A stretch of 33,071 bases of DNA from a virus, in the IMG/VR virus record IMGVR_UViG_3300044530_003077, positions 1 to 33,071 of that record. The stretch is one strand, 5' to 3'. This document shows positions 3,179 to 13,638 of the stretch, one piece after another. Numbering within the stretch: position 1 is the first letter of the stretch; the number at the start of each line of letters is the position of its first letter. Position numbers and translations under genes: made by a program. The notes beneath the pieces were generated by a model. That model did no database searches, was not told the origin of the DNA, and saw only the letters and a program-made list of their open reading frames with translations.

Positions 3179-3424
3179 ATGTTAGCAGAAATATTAGAAA
3201 AATATCCTGATGAAGAATTCCTTTCTGCTGATGGGTTTAATAATGCCATATTAGGTGTAGAAGAAAAATCTATGAGGCTTATTTACTCTATAGCCAAATG
3301 TATAGAAATTCTAATGGAAGATATGTCAGAAGAAGAGGCTTTTGAATATTTTGATTACAATGTTAGTGGAGCTTACATGGGAGAAAAAACTCCAATTTGG
3401 TGCGATGACATTTTAAACTTCTAA
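3179..3424 (+). CDS. Small acidic unknown protein (81 aa)
   Basis: ATG at 3179 follows an AT-rich leader (AAAAATAAAAATT) and the gene ends 1 bp before the ATG of the nuclease gene at 3426, so the two are coupled. The product is acidic, with conserved-looking segments SMRLIYSIAKCIEILMEDM and YNVSGAYMGEKTPIWC near its end. Small phage proteins with an EAFEYFDYNVSGAY-like segment are common, but to my knowledge have no assigned function. In T4 the equivalent position holds small transcription or replication factors. No domain can be named. Confidence 0.65.
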   Translation: MLAEILEKYPDEEFLSADGFNNAILGVEEKSMRLIYSIAKCIEILMEDMSEEEAFEYFDYNVSGAYMGEKTPIWCDDILNF

Positions 3425-3425
3425 T

Positions 3426-4475
3426 ATGAAAACTTTATTGGTCGATGGTAATTCTTTATTAAAAAATTCATTTGAAGCAACGATTTCTACTGAAGAATAT
3501 AAAAAGAATTTCAATGGAATCTATTTGTTTCTTTTGAAATTGAGGATTATTCTTGATTCAGATTCATACTCTCATTTAAAAATAGTTTTTGATGGAGAAA
3601 AAAGTGGTTCTTTGAGAAGGGAAGTTTATCCTGAGTATAAATTAAAAAGACATACAAAGGAAAAAACTGAATTTGAAAAAGAAAAATCTTTTAAATTTAA
3701 TTATCAAAAAACTGCTTTAAAAGAATATCTATCATATTTCTGCAATGTTTATGAAGATAAATGTGTTGAAGCTGATGATATCATAGCCGAATATATTAGA
3801 AGAAAATCTTCAAATGAAAGAGTTACAATAGTAACAGGTGATTTTGACATATTAAGCCAAATCTCTTCAATGGTTGACATCTATTACTTAAACAAGTCTT
3901 TTAAATATAAAACAAGAGTAGTTGAAAGATATGAAAAAGAAGGGATAAGAAAAAATTTGATAATAGACCATAAAAATTTCAAAAAAATATTTGGATTTCC
4001 TTATGAAAATATTATATTAATAAAAACAATCTGTGGTGACAATTCAGATGAGATAAAAAATGTAAAAGGTGTAAAAGAAACAAGTTTATTTAATTGCTTC
4101 CCTGACATTCAAAAGAAGCCTCTTAAAATAGAAGATATTTTAGAACAATGTAAGATTATTAACGAATCAGATACAACAGTTCTAAAGAAAATAAAACAAA
4201 ATATTTTAGAAGGAATTACTGATGGATTACAAGGGAAAGATATATTGAAAATAAACAGTAGAATTGTAGACCTCTCAAATGAAGAATTTATCACAGAAGA
4301 ATGTATTAATAATTTGAATGAAATTGGTTTTTTCTCTAAAGAAAAGTTTGTTCCTAAAGATTCAACTTTGATGGTAGAAAAAATGAAAGAAAGCGGATTA
4401 TTAGATTTTATTAATTACAAGTCAAAAAATATCAAATATTTTTTTAAACCCTTTTTAAAAACATTTAATAAATGA
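3426..4475 (+). CDS. 5'-3' exonuclease / flap endonuclease (T4 RNase H family)
   Basis: A 349-residue metal-dependent nuclease of the FEN1/T4 RNase H family, expected to remove RNA primers and 5' flaps on the lagging strand. Metal-binding motifs are in order: VDGNS with Asp7, VFDG with Asp56, a basic segment RREVYPEYKLKR (64-75) that contacts DNA, VEADD (Glu115, Asp117, Asp118), TGDFD (Asp139, Asp141) and GDNSDEIKNVKGV (Asp205, Asp208), which is the start of the helix-hairpin-helix. T4 RNase H has 305 residues, so this one has a longer C-terminus that is Lys-rich. It lies in a probable replication operon with the SSB gene upstream and overlaps the next gene by 4 bp (ATGA). Family assignment is firm. 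Confidence 0.9.
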   Translation: MKTLLVDGNSLLKNSFEATISTEEYKKNFNGIYLFLLKLRIILDSDSYSHLKIVFDGEKSGSLRREVYPEYKLKRHTKEKTEFEKEKSFKFNYQKTALKEYLSYFCNVYEDKCVEADDIIAEYIRRKSSNERVTIVTGDFDILSQISSMVDIYYLNKSFKYKTRVVERYEKEGIRKNLIIDHKNFKKIFGFPYENIILIKTICGDNSDEIKNVKGVKETSLFNCFPDIQKKPLKIEDILEQCKIINESDTTVLKKIKQNILEGITDGLQGKDILKINSRIVDLSNEEFITEECINNLNEIGFFSKEKFVPKDSTLMVEKMKESGLLDFINYKSKNIKYFFKPFLKTFNK

Positions 4476-5725: not shown

Positions 5726-8191
5726 ATGAAAAGTTTTGAAGACAAATCTCTTGCTTATTTTGGTAAAGATTATGAACTTAAAGTTCTAAAGAATCTTATA
5801 GGTACTTATGAACAAAAAGGGAATGGTGTTTTAAGAGATGATTCTTTCGGAAGAAAGATGATAAATAAAATGACTGCTGAACATTTCACAAATGATTTGG
5901 CAAGAAGAATTTTTGTCTTTTTGAAAAACTATTATGCTTCTAAGAATAAAATACCTTTCTATGATACCATATCTTCTTTTGTAAGAGCTAAAGTGGAAAA
6001 TGAATATGAACAAGAAATGATTTTTCAATACCTTTTAGACATTGAAAAAGTTTCTATGGAAGATTCCGAATGGGTTCAAGAGAATACTATCAGTTTCATA
6101 AATACAAAGAATCTTATTTCCTCTTGGAATAAATGTCTTGAAAATTATATCAACAAAGGAAAATATGACAAGTATTCTGAGATATCAGAAATAATGACAG
6201 AAGCTATCGTTCAAATGAACGATGAAGCTCCTTTGGAGGCATTTGTTGCAGGTGACTATAGACACTTAGAAGAAGGAGAAAGACATCCTATTCCTACAGG
6301 AATTGAAGCACTTGATATTGATATGAATGGTGGGTTAGCCTATGGAGAATTTGCTTTGGTTATTGCTCCTTCGGGAATTGGTAAAGCTCAACCTTCTTTT
6401 TCAAAAGTTTATACTCCTGATGGGTATAAATTAATGAAAGACATAAAAGTTGGAGATAAAGTTTTTGGTTCTGATGGTAAACCTCAAACAGTATTAGGTG
6501 TTTTTCCTCAAGGTCAAAAAGAATACTATAAAGTCACAATGAATGATAATTCTTTCACATATTGTTGTAAAGAACATTTATGGACTGTTTATAAAGAAAA
6601 TAAAAAGTTTACTTTACCATTAGAAAAAATAATGAATGATTTAAAGTATAATGGTAAAAGAAAGGCATTAAAAAATAGAATACCTATAACTCCTGCAGTT
6701 GAATATGGTAAAAAAGATAATTATATTCATTCATATGTATTAGGAGTTTTATTAGGGGATGGTTGTTTATATGAAAATGGCAGTATAACTCTTTCTTGTA
6801 ATGAAGATGAAGTTATAAAAGAATTTTCTTCAAAATTAAATAAAGGATGTTCTTTAAATTATAAAGATAGATATGATTATAGAGTCATTTGTATAAAAGG
6901 ATATGCAAATCCTATAAAAACTTGTTTAAGAGAATTAGGTTTATTAGGTAAAAAATCTGATACTAAATTTATACCTGATAGTTATATGTTTACTTCTATT
7001 GAAGATAGGTTAGAATTATTAAGAGGATTAATAGATTCTGATGGATATGTTGGAAAAGGTGGGTGTATTCAATATTCTTCAGTTTCAATAAACCTTATAA
7101 ATAATATAAGAGATTTAATTAAATCGTTAGGTGGACATTGTGGTAAAATAAGAGCAAGAAATAAAAAATATACTTATAAAGGTCAAAAAAAAGATGGCAA
7201 AATTTCTTATAATATTGCGTTTACCTTTAATGATGATATAAAATTATCTTATATTCAAAGAAAACAAGAAAGAATTAAACCAAGAAATTTATATAGTAAA
7301 AGTAAATATATTAAAGAAGTATCTTTAGAAGGTGTAGAAGAGTGTTATTGTATAAAAGTTTCCAATGAAGATAGTCTTTATGTTACAGATGATTTCATTT
7401 TAACTCATAATACCACGTTTGCCACACATACTGCAAATAACGGTGCAAAATTTGGCTATAATGTTCTTCAGATATTCTTTGAAGATACTGTTGAACAAAT
7501 CAAAATGAAGCATATTTCCAAGTTAATTGGAAAACCTATCAATTTTTCTTCTAACAAAAAGAACAGAAAAACTGTTATGAAAGAAACAGATTCTAAGTTA
7601 GAGAAAATAAGAAATAGCGGAGGGTGTTTAGTACCATTATCAATGGATTCAACAGAAACAACTGTAGAAGACATTAAAAAGGTATATAAGAGAGCAATGG
7701 AACAAGGGGTTTATTTCCCTGATACAGGCGAATTGAAAAAGATAAAATTTGACTTAGTTCTTATTGACTATATAGATTGTATTAAATCTAAAAGGCATTA
7801 TGAAAAACAATGGGAAGGTCAAACTGAAATTGCAAGGGATTTAGAAAAACTTTGCGGAAAAGAAGAATTGAATTTTGCATGTTGGGTCTTCACTCAAGGA
7901 ACAAAAGGTTCTTTGAATACAAAAATAGTTACAGGTGAACAAATGGGCGGTGACTTTGGAAAGTATAAAGTAGCACATTTTGTTATGTCTTTTGCAAGAG
8001 ATTTGGAACAACAATCACAAAATAAAGCAAATGTTACAATTCTAAAAAATCGTATGGGAAGAGCAGGAATTCTATATGAAGATTGTATATTTGATAATGG
8101 TAATATGTTAATAGAATTTAACAAAGAAGAATTTTTGACTGAAAAAACTGTAAATGATACGCTTGTATCTTATTCAAATTCTTATGAATAG
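5726..8191 (+). CDS. DnaB-type replicative helicase (gp41-like) with intein
   Basis: The 821-residue precursor encodes a hexameric replicative helicase that unwinds DNA ahead of the fork using ATP. Removing the intein (residues 221-562) leaves 479 residues, close to T4 gp41 (475). The N-terminal part (1-180) is a helical domain. The RecA-like core follows: SGIGK (216-220) ends the first half of the P-loop and Thr563-Thr564 complete it as GIGKTT after splicing. The Walker B strand is DLVLIDYID in the C-extein. Later segments include an EQMGGDFGKYK loop and ILKNRMGRAG, typical of DnaB. Unspliced precursor cannot form the P-loop, so splicing is needed for activity. A host-like promoter precedes the gene and a hairpin follows it. 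Extein codon use is mixed (TTG, CTT, TTA for Leu), unlike the intein. Confidence 0.9.
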   Translation: MKSFEDKSLAYFGKDYELKVLKNLIGTYEQKGNGVLRDDSFGRKMINKMTAEHFTNDLARRIFVFLKNYYASKNKIPFYDTISSFVRAKVENEYEQEMIFQYLLDIEKVSMEDSEWVQENTISFINTKNLISSWNKCLENYINKGKYDKYSEISEIMTEAIVQMNDEAPLEAFVAGDYRHLEEGERHPIPTGIEALDIDMNGGLAYGEFALVIAPSGIGKAQPSFSKVYTPDGYKLMKDIKVGDKVFGSDGKPQTVLGVFPQGQKEYYKVTMNDNSFTYCCKEHLWTVYKENKKFTLPLEKIMNDLKYNGKRKALKNRIPITPAVEYGKKDNYIHSYVLGVLLGDGCLYENGSITLSCNEDEVIKEFSSKLNKGCSLNYKDRYDYRVICIKGYANPIKTCLRELGLLGKKSDTKFIPDSYMFTSIEDRLELLRGLIDSDGYVGKGGCIQYSSVSINLINNIRDLIKSLGGHCGKIRARNKKYTYKGQKKDGKISYNIAFTFNDDIKLSYIQRKQERIKPRNLYSKSKYIKEVSLEGVEECYCIKVSNEDSLYVTDDFILTHNTTFATHTANNGAKFGYNVLQIFFEDTVEQIKMKHISKLIGKPINFSSNKKNRKTVMKETDSKLEKIRNSGGCLVPLSMDSTETTVEDIKKVYKRAMEQGVYFPDTGELKKIKFDLVLIDYIDCIKSKRHYEKQWEGQTEIARDLEKLCGKEELNFACWVFTQGTKGSLNTKIVTGEQMGGDFGKYKVAHFVMSFARDLEQQSQNKANVTILKNRMGRAGILYEDCIFDNGNMLIEFNKEEFLTEKTVNDTLVSYSNSYE
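6386..7411 (+). other. Class-3-like intein with LAGLIDADG endonuclease in the helicase P-loop
   Basis: The intein is 342 residues, from Ala221 to Asn562, between Lys and Thr of GIGK|TT. It starts with Ala, not Cys or Ser, so it lacks the normal N-terminal nucleophile. The WCT triad that marks class 3 inteins is visible: Trp286 in the block B segment KEHLWTV, Cys542 in the block F segment CIKVSNEDSLYVT, and Thr563 at +1. It ends in LTHN. Two LAGLIDADG motifs, LGVLLGDG (339-346) and LLRGLIDSDG (431-440), each keep their acidic residue, so a homing endonuclease may be active. Leucine is almost all TTA and Ile mostly ATA within the intein, while the flanking exteins use TTG and CTT as well, a sign of later acquisition. 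Confidence 0.88.
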
Positions 8192-8311: not shown

Positions 8312-9262
8312 ATGGAAGAGAAAATTTTAACAGAAAGCAAAAACCGATTTGTATTATTTCCTATTGTACACCAAGACATTTGGAATTTTAGAGAACTTCA
8401 TTTGAATGCATTTTGGACAACAAAAGAATTAGATTTGACTAATGATATCCGTGATTGGGAGAAACTGTCTGAAAACGAAAAATTCTTCATAAAAAATGTA
8501 TTATCATTCTTCGCAGCAAGTGATGGAATTGTAAATGAAAACTTAGCATTGAATTTTTATAATGAAGTTCAATATTCTGAAGCAAGGTCTTTCTATTCAA
8601 TGCAAATTGCAATGGAAGATATACACTCTGAAACATATAGCTTACTTATTGATACCTATATCAAAAATTCAGAAGAAAAAGATGAATGCTTCAATGCGAT
8701 TGAAAGATTACCTGCTGTTGAAAAGAAAGCTAAATGGGCTTTAGATTGGATTCAAAATGCCTCTTTCCAAGAAAGATTGATTGCTTTTGCTGCAGTTGAA
8801 GGGATATTTTTCTCAGGTTCTTTCTGTTCAATCTTTTGGTTGAAATCAAGAGGATTGATGTCAGGACTTTCTTTAGCTAATTCATTGATTTTCAAAGATG
8901 AAAATCTTCACTGTGATTTCGCTATTCATCTTTTGAATAATCACATCGAAAACAAGCCAAGTGAGAAAAGAATCAAAGAAATCTTATTATCTGCTTTAGA
9001 AATAGAAAAAGAATTCATTACAGAATCATTACCTGTTTCTTTGATTGGAATGAATTGCAATCTTATGAAACAATATTTAGAGTTTGTTGTAGATGGATTG
9101 TTGGTTAAACTTGGATGTAAAAAACATTTTAACGTAGAACAGCCATTCAAATTTATGGAACAGATTGCAGTAGAAACTAAAGGTAATTTCTTTGAATCAA
9201 GAACTACAGAGTATCAAAAAGCAAAATTGAACGAATCATTAACATTTACTGAAGACTTTTAA
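8312..9262 (+). CDS. nrdB: Ribonucleotide reductase class Ia small subunit
   Basis: A 316-residue R2 subunit that holds the diiron-tyrosyl radical cofactor used by NrdA to reduce ribonucleoside diphosphates, supplying dNTPs for phage replication. The metal ligands are Asp71, Glu102, His105, Glu163, Glu197 and His200, all present. The radical Tyr109 lies four residues after His105 in EDIHSETY, the normal spacing. The segment EDIHSETYSLLIDTYI resembles eukaryotic and viral R2 more than E. coli NrdB. It is followed 10 bp later by nrdA, so the order is B then A and the two are co-expressed. Length is a little below E. coli R2 (about 375). Confidence 0.95.
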   Translation: MEEKILTESKNRFVLFPIVHQDIWNFRELHLNAFWTTKELDLTNDIRDWEKLSENEKFFIKNVLSFFAASDGIVNENLALNFYNEVQYSEARSFYSMQIAMEDIHSETYSLLIDTYIKNSEEKDECFNAIERLPAVEKKAKWALDWIQNASFQERLIAFAAVEGIFFSGSFCSIFWLKSRGLMSGLSLANSLIFKDENLHCDFAIHLLNNHIENKPSEKRIKEILLSALEIEKEFITESLPVSLIGMNCNLMKQYLEFVVDGLLVKLGCKKHFNVEQPFKFMEQIAVETKGNFFESRTTEYQKAKLNESLTFTEDF

Positions 9263-9272
9263 ATAAAAACTT

Positions 9273-11438
9273 ATGTCATTAAAAATTCAAAAAAGAAACG
9301 GAGAAATCACAGCCTTTAATCCAACTAAAATCCACAATAGGATTAAGAAGGCTGCAAAAGGATTAAGTGTTAATTCTGATGAGATTTTTATTAAAGTAAT
9401 TACTTCAGTTCCTACAGAAGGTGTAATTACTTCTAAACAAATTGATAATTTGATAGCAGAAATTGCTGCATCTTATACAGGAAGTCATTATGACTACTCA
9501 AGATTGGCTGCAGTAGTTTCAATTTCTTCTTATCACAAAGAAACAAAAGAAAGTTTCTGTGATACTATGGAAGACTTAAATAAAACAGGTGTTATTAATG
9601 ATGATATGATAAATATTATCAAACGTTATGGTAAAGAAAATATTGATAATGCAATCAATAGTAATAACGATTACAACTTTGACTTTTTTGCTTGGAGGTC
9701 TTTGTTTGAAATGTATCTTCTAAAGATGCCTGATGGCACTACAGTAGAAAGACCTCAGCATATGTACATGAGAGTTGCCTTATGGATTACAAATTCCTTT
9801 GAAGAGGCTATTGAGTACTATAAATCATTATCGGTTCAATTGATTTCACCTGCAACTCCTATTATGATTAATTCAGGAACAAAAATTCCTCAATTAGCAT
9901 CATGTGTTCTTCATTTTAATGATGGGGATTCAAGAGAAGGTTTATTGGATACAATGAGAGATATTTCAACTTATTCTGCGGATGCTGCAGGTATTGGTCT
10001 TTGTATGTCAAATATTAGAAGCAAAGAAAGTAGATTGAGTTCTTCAGGAGGATTTGCAGGAGGGTTGTTAAAATATCTTAAAATTGTTAATGAATCGTTG
10101 AGATTTTTTAATCAACAGGGAAGGAGGCCAGGCTCGGCTGCAATCTACATCGAACCTTGGCACAAAGATATCTTTGACCTCTTGAACATCAAAAAGAATA
10201 CAGGTGCAGAAGAACTCAGAGCAAGAGACCTTTTCACTGCCATTTGGATTCCTGATAATTTCATGAGAGCTGTAAAAGAAGACTCTGATTGGTATCTATT
10301 TTGTCCTAATGATGTTGTTAAAGCAGGTATCAAACCTCTTCAAGATTGTTATGGTTTGGAATATGAAGCCAATTATCAAAAGGCAATTGAATTAGGTCTT
10401 GGGAAACAAGTGAAAGCTCAAGAGGTTTGGAATAAAATCATTGAATCCCAAATCGAAACAGGTGTTCCTTATCTTTTATCAAAGGATAATGTAAACAAGA
10501 AAAGTAATCAAAAAAATATTGGAACTATCAGACAATCAAACCTTTGTGCAGAAATTGTGCAATATAGTGACGAATCTAACTTTACTGCAATATGCAGTCT
10601 TTCATCAATGATTTTGAAAAACTTCATTATGGATGGAAAATTCAATTTTGAATTATTGCATTCTGAAGTGAGAAAGGTAATTAGAGCTATTAATAAGGTT
10701 ATTGATATCAATAATTATTCTACAAAAAAAGGTGAAAGAGGTGGATTGAGTCAAAGAGCTATTGCAATAGGAACTCAAGGTTTGGCAGATGTATTTTATC
10801 TAATGGACTATGAGTTTACTTCAAATGAAGCAAAGACTTTGAATAAGGAAATATTTGAAACAATTTATCATGCTGCTATCACTGAAAGTATGGAACTTTG
10901 TAAGAATAATATTTATAAGCCTTATGAATATTTTGAAGGTTCTCCAATATCAAAAGGTATATTCCAATGGGATATGTGGGAGTTAAATGAATCAGATTTA
11001 TCAGGGAAATGGGATTGGAATTCTTTAAGAAATGATGTTGTTACTTATGGAGTTTGCAATTCTTTGACTACTGCACAAATGCCTGTAGCTTGTCAAACTT
11101 CTGATACCAAAATCATAACTGAAAATGGAATTATGTCTTTCAGAGAAATTTGTGAAATGAATGATATAGATGTAGATTCTATTGAAAGTAATAAAGAAGG
11201 TGGAATTTGGTTTGATTTCAAAAATCCTATTAATGTTAAAACTATTGATGGATATTCTGCTTCAAATAAAATTTACTATAATGGTCATGCAGAAATTTTT
11301 GACATTGAAATGGAAGATGGTACACATTTCAAATGTAGCTCTGAACATAAATTTTTAGTGAATCGTGATGGTGAAAAAGTTTGGGTGAAAGTGAAAGATT
11401 TATTAGAAAATGATGACATTATAAACATTAATGAATAA
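9273..11438 (+). CDS. nrdA: Ribonucleotide reductase large subunit, N-terminal part fused to split intein N-half
   Basis: The 721-residue product is the first 606 residues of class Ia NrdA plus a 115-residue intein N-half. An ATP-cone occupies about 1-90 (begins LKIQKRNGEITAF). Catalytic features are Cys211 (LASCVLHFND), the NLCAE motif with Asn423, Cys425 and Glu427, and Cys441. PGSAAIYIEPWHKDI (286-300) is the usual core segment. At MPVA|CQTSD the extein ends and the intein starts with Cys607. The rest of NrdA is encoded 1.5 kb downstream at 12905-13597, so protein trans-splicing is needed for an active enzyme: 606 plus 194 residues gives 800, a normal NrdA length. The break falls in the conserved MP-T/V-A-S active-site loop. 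Confidence 0.93.
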   Translation: MSLKIQKRNGEITAFNPTKIHNRIKKAAKGLSVNSDEIFIKVITSVPTEGVITSKQIDNLIAEIAASYTGSHYDYSRLAAVVSISSYHKETKESFCDTMEDLNKTGVINDDMINIIKRYGKENIDNAINSNNDYNFDFFAWRSLFEMYLLKMPDGTTVERPQHMYMRVALWITNSFEEAIEYYKSLSVQLISPATPIMINSGTKIPQLASCVLHFNDGDSREGLLDTMRDISTYSADAAGIGLCMSNIRSKESRLSSSGGFAGGLLKYLKIVNESLRFFNQQGRRPGSAAIYIEPWHKDIFDLLNIKKNTGAEELRARDLFTAIWIPDNFMRAVKEDSDWYLFCPNDVVKAGIKPLQDCYGLEYEANYQKAIELGLGKQVKAQEVWNKIIESQIETGVPYLLSKDNVNKKSNQKNIGTIRQSNLCAEIVQYSDESNFTAICSLSSMILKNFIMDGKFNFELLHSEVRKVIRAINKVIDINNYSTKKGERGGLSQRAIAIGTQGLADVFYLMDYEFTSNEAKTLNKEIFETIYHAAITESMELCKNNIYKPYEYFEGSPISKGIFQWDMWELNESDLSGKWDWNSLRNDVVTYGVCNSLTTAQMPVACQTSDTKIITENGIMSFREICEMNDIDVDSIESNKEGGIWFDFKNPINVKTIDGYSASNKIYYNGHAEIFDIEMEDGTHFKCSSEHKFLVNRDGEKVWVKVKDLLENDDIININE
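11091..11435 (+). other. Split intein N-half (IntN)
   Basis: 115 codons from Cys607 of the NrdA-N precursor to the stop. Block A begins CQTSDTKIITENG and block B is seen as GTHFKCSSEHKFLV, with the Thr and His of the splicing site. The half ends at KVKDLLENDDIININE. The matching C-half is at 12905-13012; together they form a 151-residue mini-intein without a built-in endonuclease. Confidence 0.9.
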
Positions 11439-11473
11439 GGTCTGCCATTTGCGTGTTATATTTTTTTAAATGA

Positions 11474-11490
11474 GAATATTTATATATAAA
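11474..11490 (+). promoter_or_regulatory. Late-type promoter before the endonuclease gene
   Basis: GAATATTTATATATAAA is 21 bp upstream of the ATG at 11495. It gives the endonuclease and the downstream nrdA C-part their own start of transcription between the two intein halves. Confidence 0.5.
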
Positions 11491-11494
11491 AAGT

Positions 11495-12915
11495 ATGAGT
11501 AATTTATCATTTAATAATTGTAACATTAAAACAGTTAATGGGTTAGTTAATTTTTTTATAAGCTTAGAAGATGAATCTATAGATATTAATGGCGATGTTT
11601 ATGAAATTTTTAAAATTTTCGAAATTAATGATAATACATTAACTCCTGAAAGTTTAATTAATATTTTCGTTAGCCACAAAAAAAGTATTAGAAGTATTTC
11701 AAAATACTTATCAAACAACAAAAATTTTATAGATATTGATAGATTAAATTCATTTATAAGCTACAAATTAACTAACCCAAATGACTCAAATAGTAAGACA
11801 TTCTTAACATTAATGTATGGGGAAAAAATAGGATTAGAAAAATTCTCTCAACAACAAAATAAATTTTCAAAATATTATAATATAAAAATAAAAAATCAAC
11901 CACCATTGATAATTTTATAAAAAAATATGGAGAAATTAAAGGTGTTGAAAAGTATAATGAGTATGTAGAAAAAAGTAAAAATACTATTAGTAATTTTAAG
12001 AAGAGATATGGTGAACAATGGGAAGAAAAATGGATAAAATACACAAGTAAAGATTCTTCATCAAAATCTTGGGCATTAAAAAAATCTAATGGGGATATTA
12101 CTCTTGCAGAAAAAATATTTAAAGAGAGAATAGAAAAAACTACTGTTAATTTAGATTTCCTAATAAAAAAACATGGAGAAATACAAGGTAATATTATATG
12201 GAATGAAATAAAGAAGCAAAAAGATGGCAGTAGTTTGAATTACTATTTATCAAAATATAATGACCTCGAAATTGCAACAGAAGAATATAAAAAAAATAAT
12301 AAAAGAAAAGATAGCAGCAGTTTAGAATTTTTTATTAAAAAATATGGTGACAAAGGACTAATCAAATATAAAGAAAAATGTAAAACTTCTGATAACAAGT
12401 CTTTAAACTTTTTTCTTACTAAATACAATAATTTTGATGAAGCACTTTTTAATTATATTGAAACTCAAAAAAATCTAAAGGTAAAATTTTTAAAAGCGAG
12501 TAAAGCAAGTTTAAAAATACTACAGCCTCTTTATACTTTTTTAATTGATAATAATATTTTCGATAAAGATGATATATTCTTAGGGATTGAAGGCGTTAAA
12601 GAATTTTTTATAAAAACTGTAAACAATATTTATTTTTATGATTTTACAATAAAAAGTAAAAAAATAATTGTAGAATACAATGGTAAAGCATGGCATCCAA
12701 ATTGGGAAAAATACTCTATAGAAGATTGTATTAAGAATTTCTCTAATAAAAAAATTGATGCAAAAAAAGCTATTGAAAAAGATAAAAATAAAATAAATAC
12801 TGCAAAAGAAAATGGATTTAACGTTTTAATTTTATGGGAAGAGGATGGATACGATTATAATCAACAAAAATTAAAAAATTTTTTAATTCAAAACAATATA
12901 AATTATGAAAATTAG
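11495..12915 (+). CDS. Free-standing Vsr-like homing endonuclease, requires -1 frameshift
   Basis: The gene is open in one frame from ATG 11495 to a stop at 11918-11920, and continues in the -1 frame from 11896 to 12915. The second frame has no ATG near its beginning (first TTG at 12235), so it is not a separate gene. Joined at AAAAAAT (11890-11896), the product is about 473 residues. It has about eight degenerate repeats of 25-29 residues (FFIKKYGDKGLIKYKEKCK-like), lying on both sides of the shift, which shows that the parts belong together. Near the C-terminus, FYDFTIKSKKIIVEYNGKAWH followed by NGFNVLILWEED resembles the Vsr/EDxHD nuclease fold. It probably cuts intein-free nrdA. Disruption by a one-base deletion is the alternative to programmed frameshifting. 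Codon use is extremely TTA, ATA and AAA-rich. Confidence 0.75.
11890..11896 (+). other. Candidate -1 frameshift heptamer A AAA AAT
   Basis: In the zero frame the bases are read A AAA AAT, fitting X XXY YYZ. Slipping back one base lets Lys and Asn tRNAs re-pair as AAA AAA and enter the frame that begins TCA ACC ACC ATT. There is no obvious strong downstream stem. A deleted A in the six-A run would give the same picture. Confidence 0.5.
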
Positions 12916-13012
12916 AAAAATCACTAAATTAGAAGAGACACAACCTGTATGGGACATTGAAGTTGAAGATGTTCATCACTATGTTACAGAAAATGGATGT
13001 GTTAGCCATAAT
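12905..13012 (+). other. Split intein C-half (IntC)
   Basis: 36 codons from the ATG to Asn36 (VSHN), followed by AGT for Ser+1 at 13013. The pairing partner is the N-half at 11091-11435. Penultimate His and terminal Asn are intact, so splicing chemistry should be complete. Confidence 0.9.
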
Positions 13013-13597
13013 AGTTCTGCAAAAATCACAGGTTCTTATGAAATGACTGAACCTGCTCATTCGGCTATCTTCAACAGAAGGGTTGTTGGAGGTGAAATTT
13101 TGATAGTAAATAAATACTTGATATCAGACTTTGAAAAGATTGGCATTTGGAGTGAAGAGTTGAAAAATGATATTATTATGAATGAAGGTTCAATTCAAAA
13201 TATTAATTTCAATAGCTATTTAGACCCTGAAGATAAAAAGTATGATTCAAAGGTAAAAAGGATTGAACATTTGATTAAAAAGTATAAGACGATATGGGAA
13301 ATCTCTCAAAGGGAGCTTATTGATATGGCTGCAGATAGAGCTCCATTTATTGACCAATCTCAATCGATGAATATCTATATGTCAAATCCGACTTTATCAA
13401 AAATAACTTCAGCTCATTTTCATGGATGGCAAAAAGGATTGAAGACCTTATGTTATTACCTTAGAACAAAAGCGATTTCAACAGGGGCAAAACATCTTGC
13501 TTTGGATATTTCAAAATATGAAAAGACTGAAGCTCCAACAATAGTTCCAACGAAGCCTAAAGATTCTCCTTTTGACTGTTTTGGTTGTTCCTCATAA
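12905..13597 (+). CDS. nrdA: Split intein C-half fused to NrdA C-terminal part
   Basis: The ATG at 12905 overlaps the last 11 bp of the endonuclease gene. Residues 1-36 are the intein C-half, with block F WDIEVEDVHHYVTENG and block G CVSHN; the penultimate His and final Asn are present and the +1 residue is Ser37. The C-extein (194 residues) continues the reductase with SSAKITGSYEMTEPAHS, includes the LSKITSAHFHGWQKGLKT core segment and ends DCFGCSS, the redox-active Cys pair reduced by thioredoxin or glutaredoxin. Start at residue 1 gives a 36-residue IntC, a usual length for split inteins. A strong terminator follows at 13605. Trans-splicing with the product of 9273-11438 yields full NrdA. 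Confidence 0.93.
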   Translation: MKIRKITKLEETQPVWDIEVEDVHHYVTENGCVSHNSSAKITGSYEMTEPAHSAIFNRRVVGGEILIVNKYLISDFEKIGIWSEELKNDIIMNEGSIQNINFNSYLDPEDKKYDSKVKRIEHLIKKYKTIWEISQRELIDMAADRAPFIDQSQSMNIYMSNPTLSKITSAHFHGWQKGLKTLCYYLRTKAISTGAKHLALDISKYEKTEAPTIVPTKPKDSPFDCFGCSS

Positions 13598-13604
13598 AAA
13601 TATT

Positions 13605-13638
13605 GGGAGATAATGGAAATTATCTCCCTTTTTTTTTG
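13605..13638 (+). terminator. Strong hairpin terminator after nrdA
   Basis: GGGAGATAAT (13605-13614) pairs perfectly with ATTATCTCCC (13619-13628) across a GGAA tetraloop, followed by ten T residues. Confidence 0.92.

What the first reader, a model, noticed from the sequence alone, without database searches (positions are those of the whole stretch)
9273..13597. Ribonucleotide reductase large subunit is split across two genes by a natural split intein with an endonuclease gene between
NrdA N-part plus IntN (9273-11438) and IntC plus NrdA C-part (12905-13597) contain a complete set of intein blocks and all NrdA catalytic residues; the exteins add up to 800 residues. An endonuclease gene lies between the halves with its own promoter. 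This is the 'fractured gene' arrangement described for phage-like metagenomic sequences (including NrdA). Here it sits in a T4-type phage, with class 1 chemistry: Cys1, His-Asn, Ser+1.
Basis: partly seen in the sequence, partly recalled or inferred. Interest (0 to 1): 0.85.

Follow-up and report, generated by a model that had tools for sequence, protein, structure and literature searches.

The report
Phage nrdA split by mobile intein
In this phage an essential DNA-building enzyme is made as two separate proteins that should weld themselves together through a split intein, with a homing-endonuclease gene lodged between the halves; this is a clear new example of a known arrangement ('fractured genes'), and its endonuclease is broken in this particular genome.

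Summary
Confirmed. nrdA-N plus a 115-aa IntN (9273-11438) and a 36-aa IntC plus nrdA-C (12905-13597) join to an 800-residue class Ia R1, collinear with solved R1 proteins. In 77 of 80 related viral contigs the two exteins abut at exactly this junction with nothing inserted. The intein is class 1 by sequence. The gene between belongs to the Vsr/EDxHD homing endonucleases: the best structural match is the I-Bth0305I catalytic domain (Z 9.5). It has a late-type promoter motif. This is the 'fractured gene' arrangement of Dassa et al. 2009, so a new member of a known kind. New from relatives: the same site also occurs empty and as a contiguous mini-intein. A second site beside the catalytic cysteine carries split inteins with GIY-YIG endonucleases at every stage of decay, and at least four genomes break nrdA at both sites, giving three chains. 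In all 19 fractured loci measured, the open endonuclease frame ends at or just past the IntC start codon, which suggests translational coupling. Trans-splicing itself remains untested.

The parts
8312..9262 (+). nrdB, class Ia RNR small subunit, immediately upstream
   Evidence: Pfam PF00268 E 1e-101
9273..11090 (+). nrdA N-extein, 606 aa (ATP-cone, all-alpha and most of barrel domain)
11091..11438 (+). IntN, 115 aa plus stop: Cys1, block B SSEH; acidic (net -12)
11439..11494 (+). 56-nt gap with late-type promoter-like motif TATTTATA (11477-11484) and conserved element CATTTGCGTGTTA just after the IntN stop
11495..11920 (+). 5' part of endonuclease gene, open frame 141 aa, then out of frame
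11869..11886 (+). position of the 61-bp deletion relative to L003, between short imperfect repeats; breaks the endonuclease frame
11905..12915 (+). rest of endonuclease gene in the other frame: helical repeat region then nuclease domain
12499..12912 (+). Vsr/EDxHD nuclease domain, 138 aa
   Evidence: AlphaFold pLDDT 94.6; I-Bth0305I 3r3p Z 9.5, Vsr 1cw0 Z 8.4; profile hits Vsr and 3r3p
12905..13012 (+). IntC, 36 aa: own ATG, blocks F and G, ends His-Asn; ATG lies 11 nt inside the end of the endonuclease frame
13013..13597 (+). nrdA C-extein, 194 aa, begins Ser+1; carries YYLRT and C-terminal CFGC
13605..13637 (+). terminator-like hairpin and T run closing the nrd operon

Best explanation
A homing-type mobile element (IntN, endonuclease, IntC) sits in the substrate phosphate-binding loop of nrdA (MPVA|SSAK) and has broken the gene into two cistrons. 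The two chains (721 and 230 aa) should meet through IntN and IntC. The folded intein should then carry out the class 1 reactions (Cys1 acyl shift, transfer to Ser+1, Asn cyclisation) and leave an uninterrupted 800-aa NrdA that works with NrdB. The intact endonuclease would cut intein-free nrdA of co-infecting relatives so that the whole cassette is copied in. It is transcribed from its own late-type promoter, and its reading frame ends on the IntC start, so translation of IntC-NrdA-C is probably coupled to it. In this record the endonuclease is frame-broken, so this allele can probably splice but not home by itself. Shown: architecture, empty sites, family assignments, conservation. Inferred: splicing, cutting, promoter use, coupling.
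For: Exact coordinates and domains. 77 of 80 contigs intein-free with abutting exteins. Gap-free alignment of the joined exteins to R1 structures at the junction. Intein matches gp41-1, DnaE and RadA inteins. Four further contigs with the same fracture: a twin, two relatives near 75%, and L110 with the same coordinates and proteins at the locus as one of them. Non-synonymous change well below synonymous in IntN, IntC, exteins and endonuclease, though dS is near saturation. Same intein contiguous in relative L093 and in Campylobacter CPt10. Nuclease domain matches I-Bth0305I and Vsr. Promoter motif before 6 of 27 genes versus 16 of 1224 ATGs, p about 4e-7. Endonuclease stop within -2 to +47 nt of the IntC start in 19 of 19 loci. 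Basic N-terminus of IntC in split forms but not in the contiguous L093 form.
Against: No experimental evidence of splicing. The window is a 33-kb fragment, so an intact nrdA elsewhere in this very genome is not excluded. The endonuclease frame is broken here, and whether that is a real mutation or an assembly error cannot be told. Overlapping genes are common in phages, so overlap alone does not prove coupling, and the 19 loci are related and partly selected by pattern.
Confidence: 0.9

Rival explanations
1. NrdA works as two separate chains that associate without splicing, as in Aeromonas phage Aeh1, where the mobE endonuclease splits nrdA.
For: A two-piece working NrdA is known for Aeh1 (discussed in PMC3653736; cited in PMC10448857). 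Both halves here carry conserved residues.
Against: Here both ends at the break carry intein halves with all catalytic positions, conserved across diverged relatives. Unspliced tails of 115 and 36 aa would sit in the substrate phosphate-binding loop.
Confidence: 0.04
2. The locus is a decayed, non-functional nrdA (pseudogene), or an assembly artefact joining pieces.
For: The endonuclease frame is broken, and some phage nrdA genes with inteins have been called degenerating (PMC3653736).
Against: Both halves and both intein parts are open and constrained. The same layout occurs in separate contigs down to about 75% DNA identity, including a 162-kb one, and in isolated Klebsiella phages.
Confidence: 0.03
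3. The intein is really contiguous: a frameshift or stop read-through joins IntN, endonuclease and IntC into one precursor.
For: Contiguous inteins occur at the same site in L093 and CPt10.
Against: The IntN stop, a 56-60 nt gap with a promoter-like motif and a separate ATG for the endonuclease are kept in WIN, L003 and L108, and the layout (with a weaker motif) in L004. The IntN, endonuclease and IntC reading frames are not continuous.
Confidence: 0.02

Closest known systems
Fractured genes with split inteins (Dassa et al. 2009, NAR 37:2560; includes nrdA loci)
   Same: Enzyme gene broken by a split intein, free-standing Vsr-type endonuclease gene between, phage context, control element accompanying the endonuclease
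   Different: New locus and sequence; endonuclease broken in this record; relatives show both-site fractures and all decay stages. The paper itself could not be read here; its content is from my own knowledge plus the citation in PMC3653736
Klebsiella phages phiKp_21 and KP13-7 nrdA (LC768485, OP617745)
   Same: Fractured at the equivalent site with IntN, a middle gene and an overlapping IntC; KP13-7 also fractured at the catalytic-Cys site
   Different: Only about 34% identical IntN; the middle gene appears to be of HNH type by eye, not Vsr; annotated only as nrdA pieces and hypothetical proteins
Campylobacter phage CP21 / CPt10 nrdA inteins
   Same: Same insertion site; CP21 fractured, CPt10 contiguous
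   Different: About 34-37% identical IntN; CP21 middle gene is a broken endonuclease of apparent HNH type
gp41-1 split intein (PDB 6qaz)
   Same: Class 1 split intein fold by sequence match (E 1e-4)
   Different: Different host gene (helicase) and low identity
I-Bth0305I (PDB 3r3p)
   Same: Catalytic domain fold, Z 9.5 over 95 residues
   Different: Intron-borne in a Bacillus phage (own knowledge); 21% identity; different N-terminal region
Aeromonas phage Aeh1 nrdA split by mobE
   Same: nrdA in two genes with an endonuclease between
   Different: No intein; chains stay separate

Membership tests
Fractured gene (split intein + free-standing endonuclease) | Conserved enzyme gene broken in two, each part carrying one intein half | tested here: met
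Fractured gene (split intein + free-standing endonuclease) | Free-standing endonuclease gene between the halves | tested here: met
   Present but frame-broken in the window; intact in twin L003 and in L004, L108
Fractured gene (split intein + free-standing endonuclease) | Protein trans-splicing restores the product | not testable with these tools
   Needs co-expression and mass spectrometry
Class 1 intein | Cys1, block B His, block F Asp/His, terminal His-Asn, Ser/Thr/Cys +1 | tested here: met
   Sequence; alignment; PDB intein matches
Vsr/EDxHD homing endonuclease (I-Bth0305I type) | Vsr-like fold and conserved acidic/His residues | tested here: met
   Z 9.5 and 8.4; profile E 0.001-0.004 to Vsr, 0.003-0.02 to 3r3p; D48, E59, G62 invariant, E35, H66, K98 nearly so in 47 sequences
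Vsr/EDxHD homing endonuclease (I-Bth0305I type) | Cuts the intein-free allele and drives homing | not testable with these tools
   Empty alleles exist; cutting needs an assay
Class Ia RNR large subunit (NrdA) | ATP-cone, barrel domain, catalytic cysteines, NLCxE, C-terminal CxxC, partner NrdB | tested here: met
T4-type phage | T4-like structural genes | tested here: met
   gp25 and gp6 in window; gp23 in related 162-kb contig

The most novel reading that the evidence does not exclude
Fractured genes follow a general life cycle in which the endonuclease frame doubles as a translational relay: its stop lies on the IntC start, so decay is tolerated only while the frame still delivers ribosomes to IntC, until deletion brings IntC directly behind IntN. 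Two such cycles can run in one gene, so some phages build NrdA from three chains by two separate trans-splicing reactions next to the active site.
Probability: 0.35. Interest if true: 0.65.

Novelty: new member of a known kind. Interest (0 to 1): 0.48.

Why it matters
Natural split inteins of this kind are among the fastest known and are widely used tools; this adds a new phage nrdA pair. More important, one clade of related phages shows empty, contiguous, fractured-with-intact-endonuclease, fractured-with-decaying-endonuclease and fractured-without-endonuclease alleles across two sites of one gene. That makes the origin and fate of split inteins directly testable.

Tried and rejected
Full-length endonuclease structure from a two-sequence alignment was poor (pLDDT 49.6) and not used; the nuclease domain with 47 sequences worked. 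Pfam gives no match over its cut-off for the endonuclease. Sigma-70 promoter scan finds no more than shuffles, so the promoter claim rests on the phage's own motif. The scan of bacterial and archaeal genomes gave no relative of IntN. The primary papers on fractured genes and metagenomic split inteins are not held. Literature searches for a natural gene with two split inteins found nothing in the held library, which is weak evidence. Aeh1-type two-chain NrdA, pseudogene and contiguous-intein readings were considered and rejected.

Full report
What is there. The window is a 33-kb virus record, GC 29%. Downstream of nrdB (8312-9262) lies nrdA in two pieces. ORF 9273-11438 encodes 606 residues of NrdA followed by a 115-residue IntN. 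ORF 12905-13597 encodes a 36-residue IntC followed by 194 residues of NrdA. Pfam assigns ATP-cone, all-alpha and barrel domains, and the barrel model ends at position 391 in the first ORF and resumes at 390 in the second. The joined 800-residue sequence aligns through the junction without a gap to yeast and human R1. The break lies between Ala and Ser of the MPTAS loop, which binds the substrate phosphates (function of the loop from general knowledge). Catalytic motifs (first active-site Cys, SNLCxE, ICSL, YYLRT, CFGC) are all present.

Is the break an insertion? Yes. Of 80 viral contigs found with the C-part, 77 have the two exteins directly adjacent, at 66-77% and 81-86% identity for most; one is too short to tell; two (L003, L004) carry the split intein. 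So the empty allele is common and the insertion point is exact to the residue.

The intein. It has Cys1, a block B histidine, block F Asp and His, the terminal His-Asn and Ser+1, that is, class 1 chemistry by sequence. It matches solved DnaE, RadA and gp41-1 inteins (E 3e-6 to 1e-4). Across four relatives non-synonymous change is well below synonymous in IntN, IntC, exteins and endonuclease, although dS is near saturation. The split forms have a basic IntC N-terminus, which the contiguous relative L093 lacks, in line with electrostatic docking of split inteins.

The gene in between. In the window it is not one frame: 11495-11920, then another frame to 12915. L003, 99.9% identical elsewhere, has 61 more bases and a 493-aa open frame. 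L004 and L108 have open frames of about the same size, so the window form is the derived, broken one, with the deletion between short imperfect repeats. Whether this is a real mutation or an assembly error cannot be told here. The C-terminal 138 residues, modelled with 47 sequences at pLDDT 94.6, match the I-Bth0305I catalytic domain (Z 9.5, rmsd 2.7, 95 residues) best, with a Vsr-like Neisseria protein (3hrl, Z 8.6) and Vsr itself (Z 8.4 and 8.1) next. The profile search points the same way. This is the Vsr-related homing endonuclease family. The region before it is helical and repeat-like and may bind DNA (inference).

Expression. A motif TATTTATA lies within 40 nt upstream of 6 of 27 genes, against 16 of 1224 ATGs over both strands (p about 4e-7). 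Several of these genes lie in or beside the structural region, so I read it as a late promoter (inference). It stands 18 nt before the endonuclease start, and the motif recurs before the endonuclease in most fractured relatives at both sites. A terminator-like hairpin closes the operon at 13605-13637. In all 19 fractured loci measured, the endonuclease frame ends between 2 nt before and 47 nt past the IntC start. These loci cover nrdA, what look by eye like topoisomerase and DNA polymerase genes, and more than one kind of endonuclease. Partly deleted endonucleases keep this frame (L103, L113). I propose translational coupling. The window's broken frame and L163 are the exceptions that could test it.

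The wider series. At the same site relatives show: empty, contiguous mini-intein (L093), fractured with open endonuclease (L003, L004, L108), fractured with broken endonuclease (window). At a second site, directly after the catalytic Cys of NLC, they show: fractured with a full GIY-YIG endonuclease (L098, L100, L106, L108, L111, L114), with an internally deleted one (L103-L105), with a remnant (L113), and with none, IntC starting 14-30 nt after the IntN stop (L004, L112). GIY-YIG is assigned by eye from the motif. L004, L108/L110, L115 and Klebsiella phage KP13-7 are split at both sites, so NrdA must come from three chains. The 162-kb contig of L108 has no other nrdA.

Comparison. The arrangement matches the 'fractured genes' of Dassa et al. 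2009 in every feature I could test. A later survey states that they reported seven nrdA cases (PMC3653736). I could not read the paper itself. Isolated phages with the same nrdA fracture are in GenBank: Klebsiella phiKp_21 and KP13-7, Campylobacter CP21. Hence: new member of a known kind. The both-site fracture and the endonuclease-IntC overlap may be new observations, but I cannot exclude that they have been reported.

Verdict. Splicing, cutting and coupling remain inferences.

Noticed in passing
window 5726-8191: DnaB/gp41-like helicase with a contiguous LAGLIDADG intein in its Walker A motif (GIGK|A...THN|T); first residue Ala, Trp in block B and Cys in block F suggest a class 3 intein.
   Followed up: partly
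L004, L108, L110, L115, KP13-7 (L090): nrdA broken at two sites by two different split inteins, so NrdA must be assembled from three chains.
   Followed up: partly
L098-L114, site after catalytic Cys: Series of GIY-YIG endonucleases between split-intein halves from full length to internally deleted, remnant and absent.
   Followed up: partly
window 11439-11460 and relatives: Conserved 13-mer CATTTGCGTGTTA just after the IntN stop (CATTTACGTGTTA in L108), and ACAAATAGTCGTTT after the IntN stop at the second site in most loci; no explanation.
   Followed up: no
window, upstream of 11495, 13668, 15555, 19620, 20514, 30399: Phage-specific late-type promoter-like motif TATTTATA (often GATATTTATATTAAAA) on the coding strand.
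   Followed up: partly
L091 (Desulfovibrio phage) 3200-4400: Repeat-plus-Vsr-type endonuclease beside what looks by eye like a fractured DNA polymerase gene.
   Followed up: no
L194, L199, L211, L229: Vsr-type endonucleases followed by an IntC in apparent topoisomerase and DNA polymerase genes, with the same endonuclease-IntC overlap.
   Followed up: partly
L090 1199-1895 (Klebsiella phage KP13-7): A further interruption of nrdA with a small endonuclease-like ORF and no visible intein; possibly an intron.
   Followed up: no
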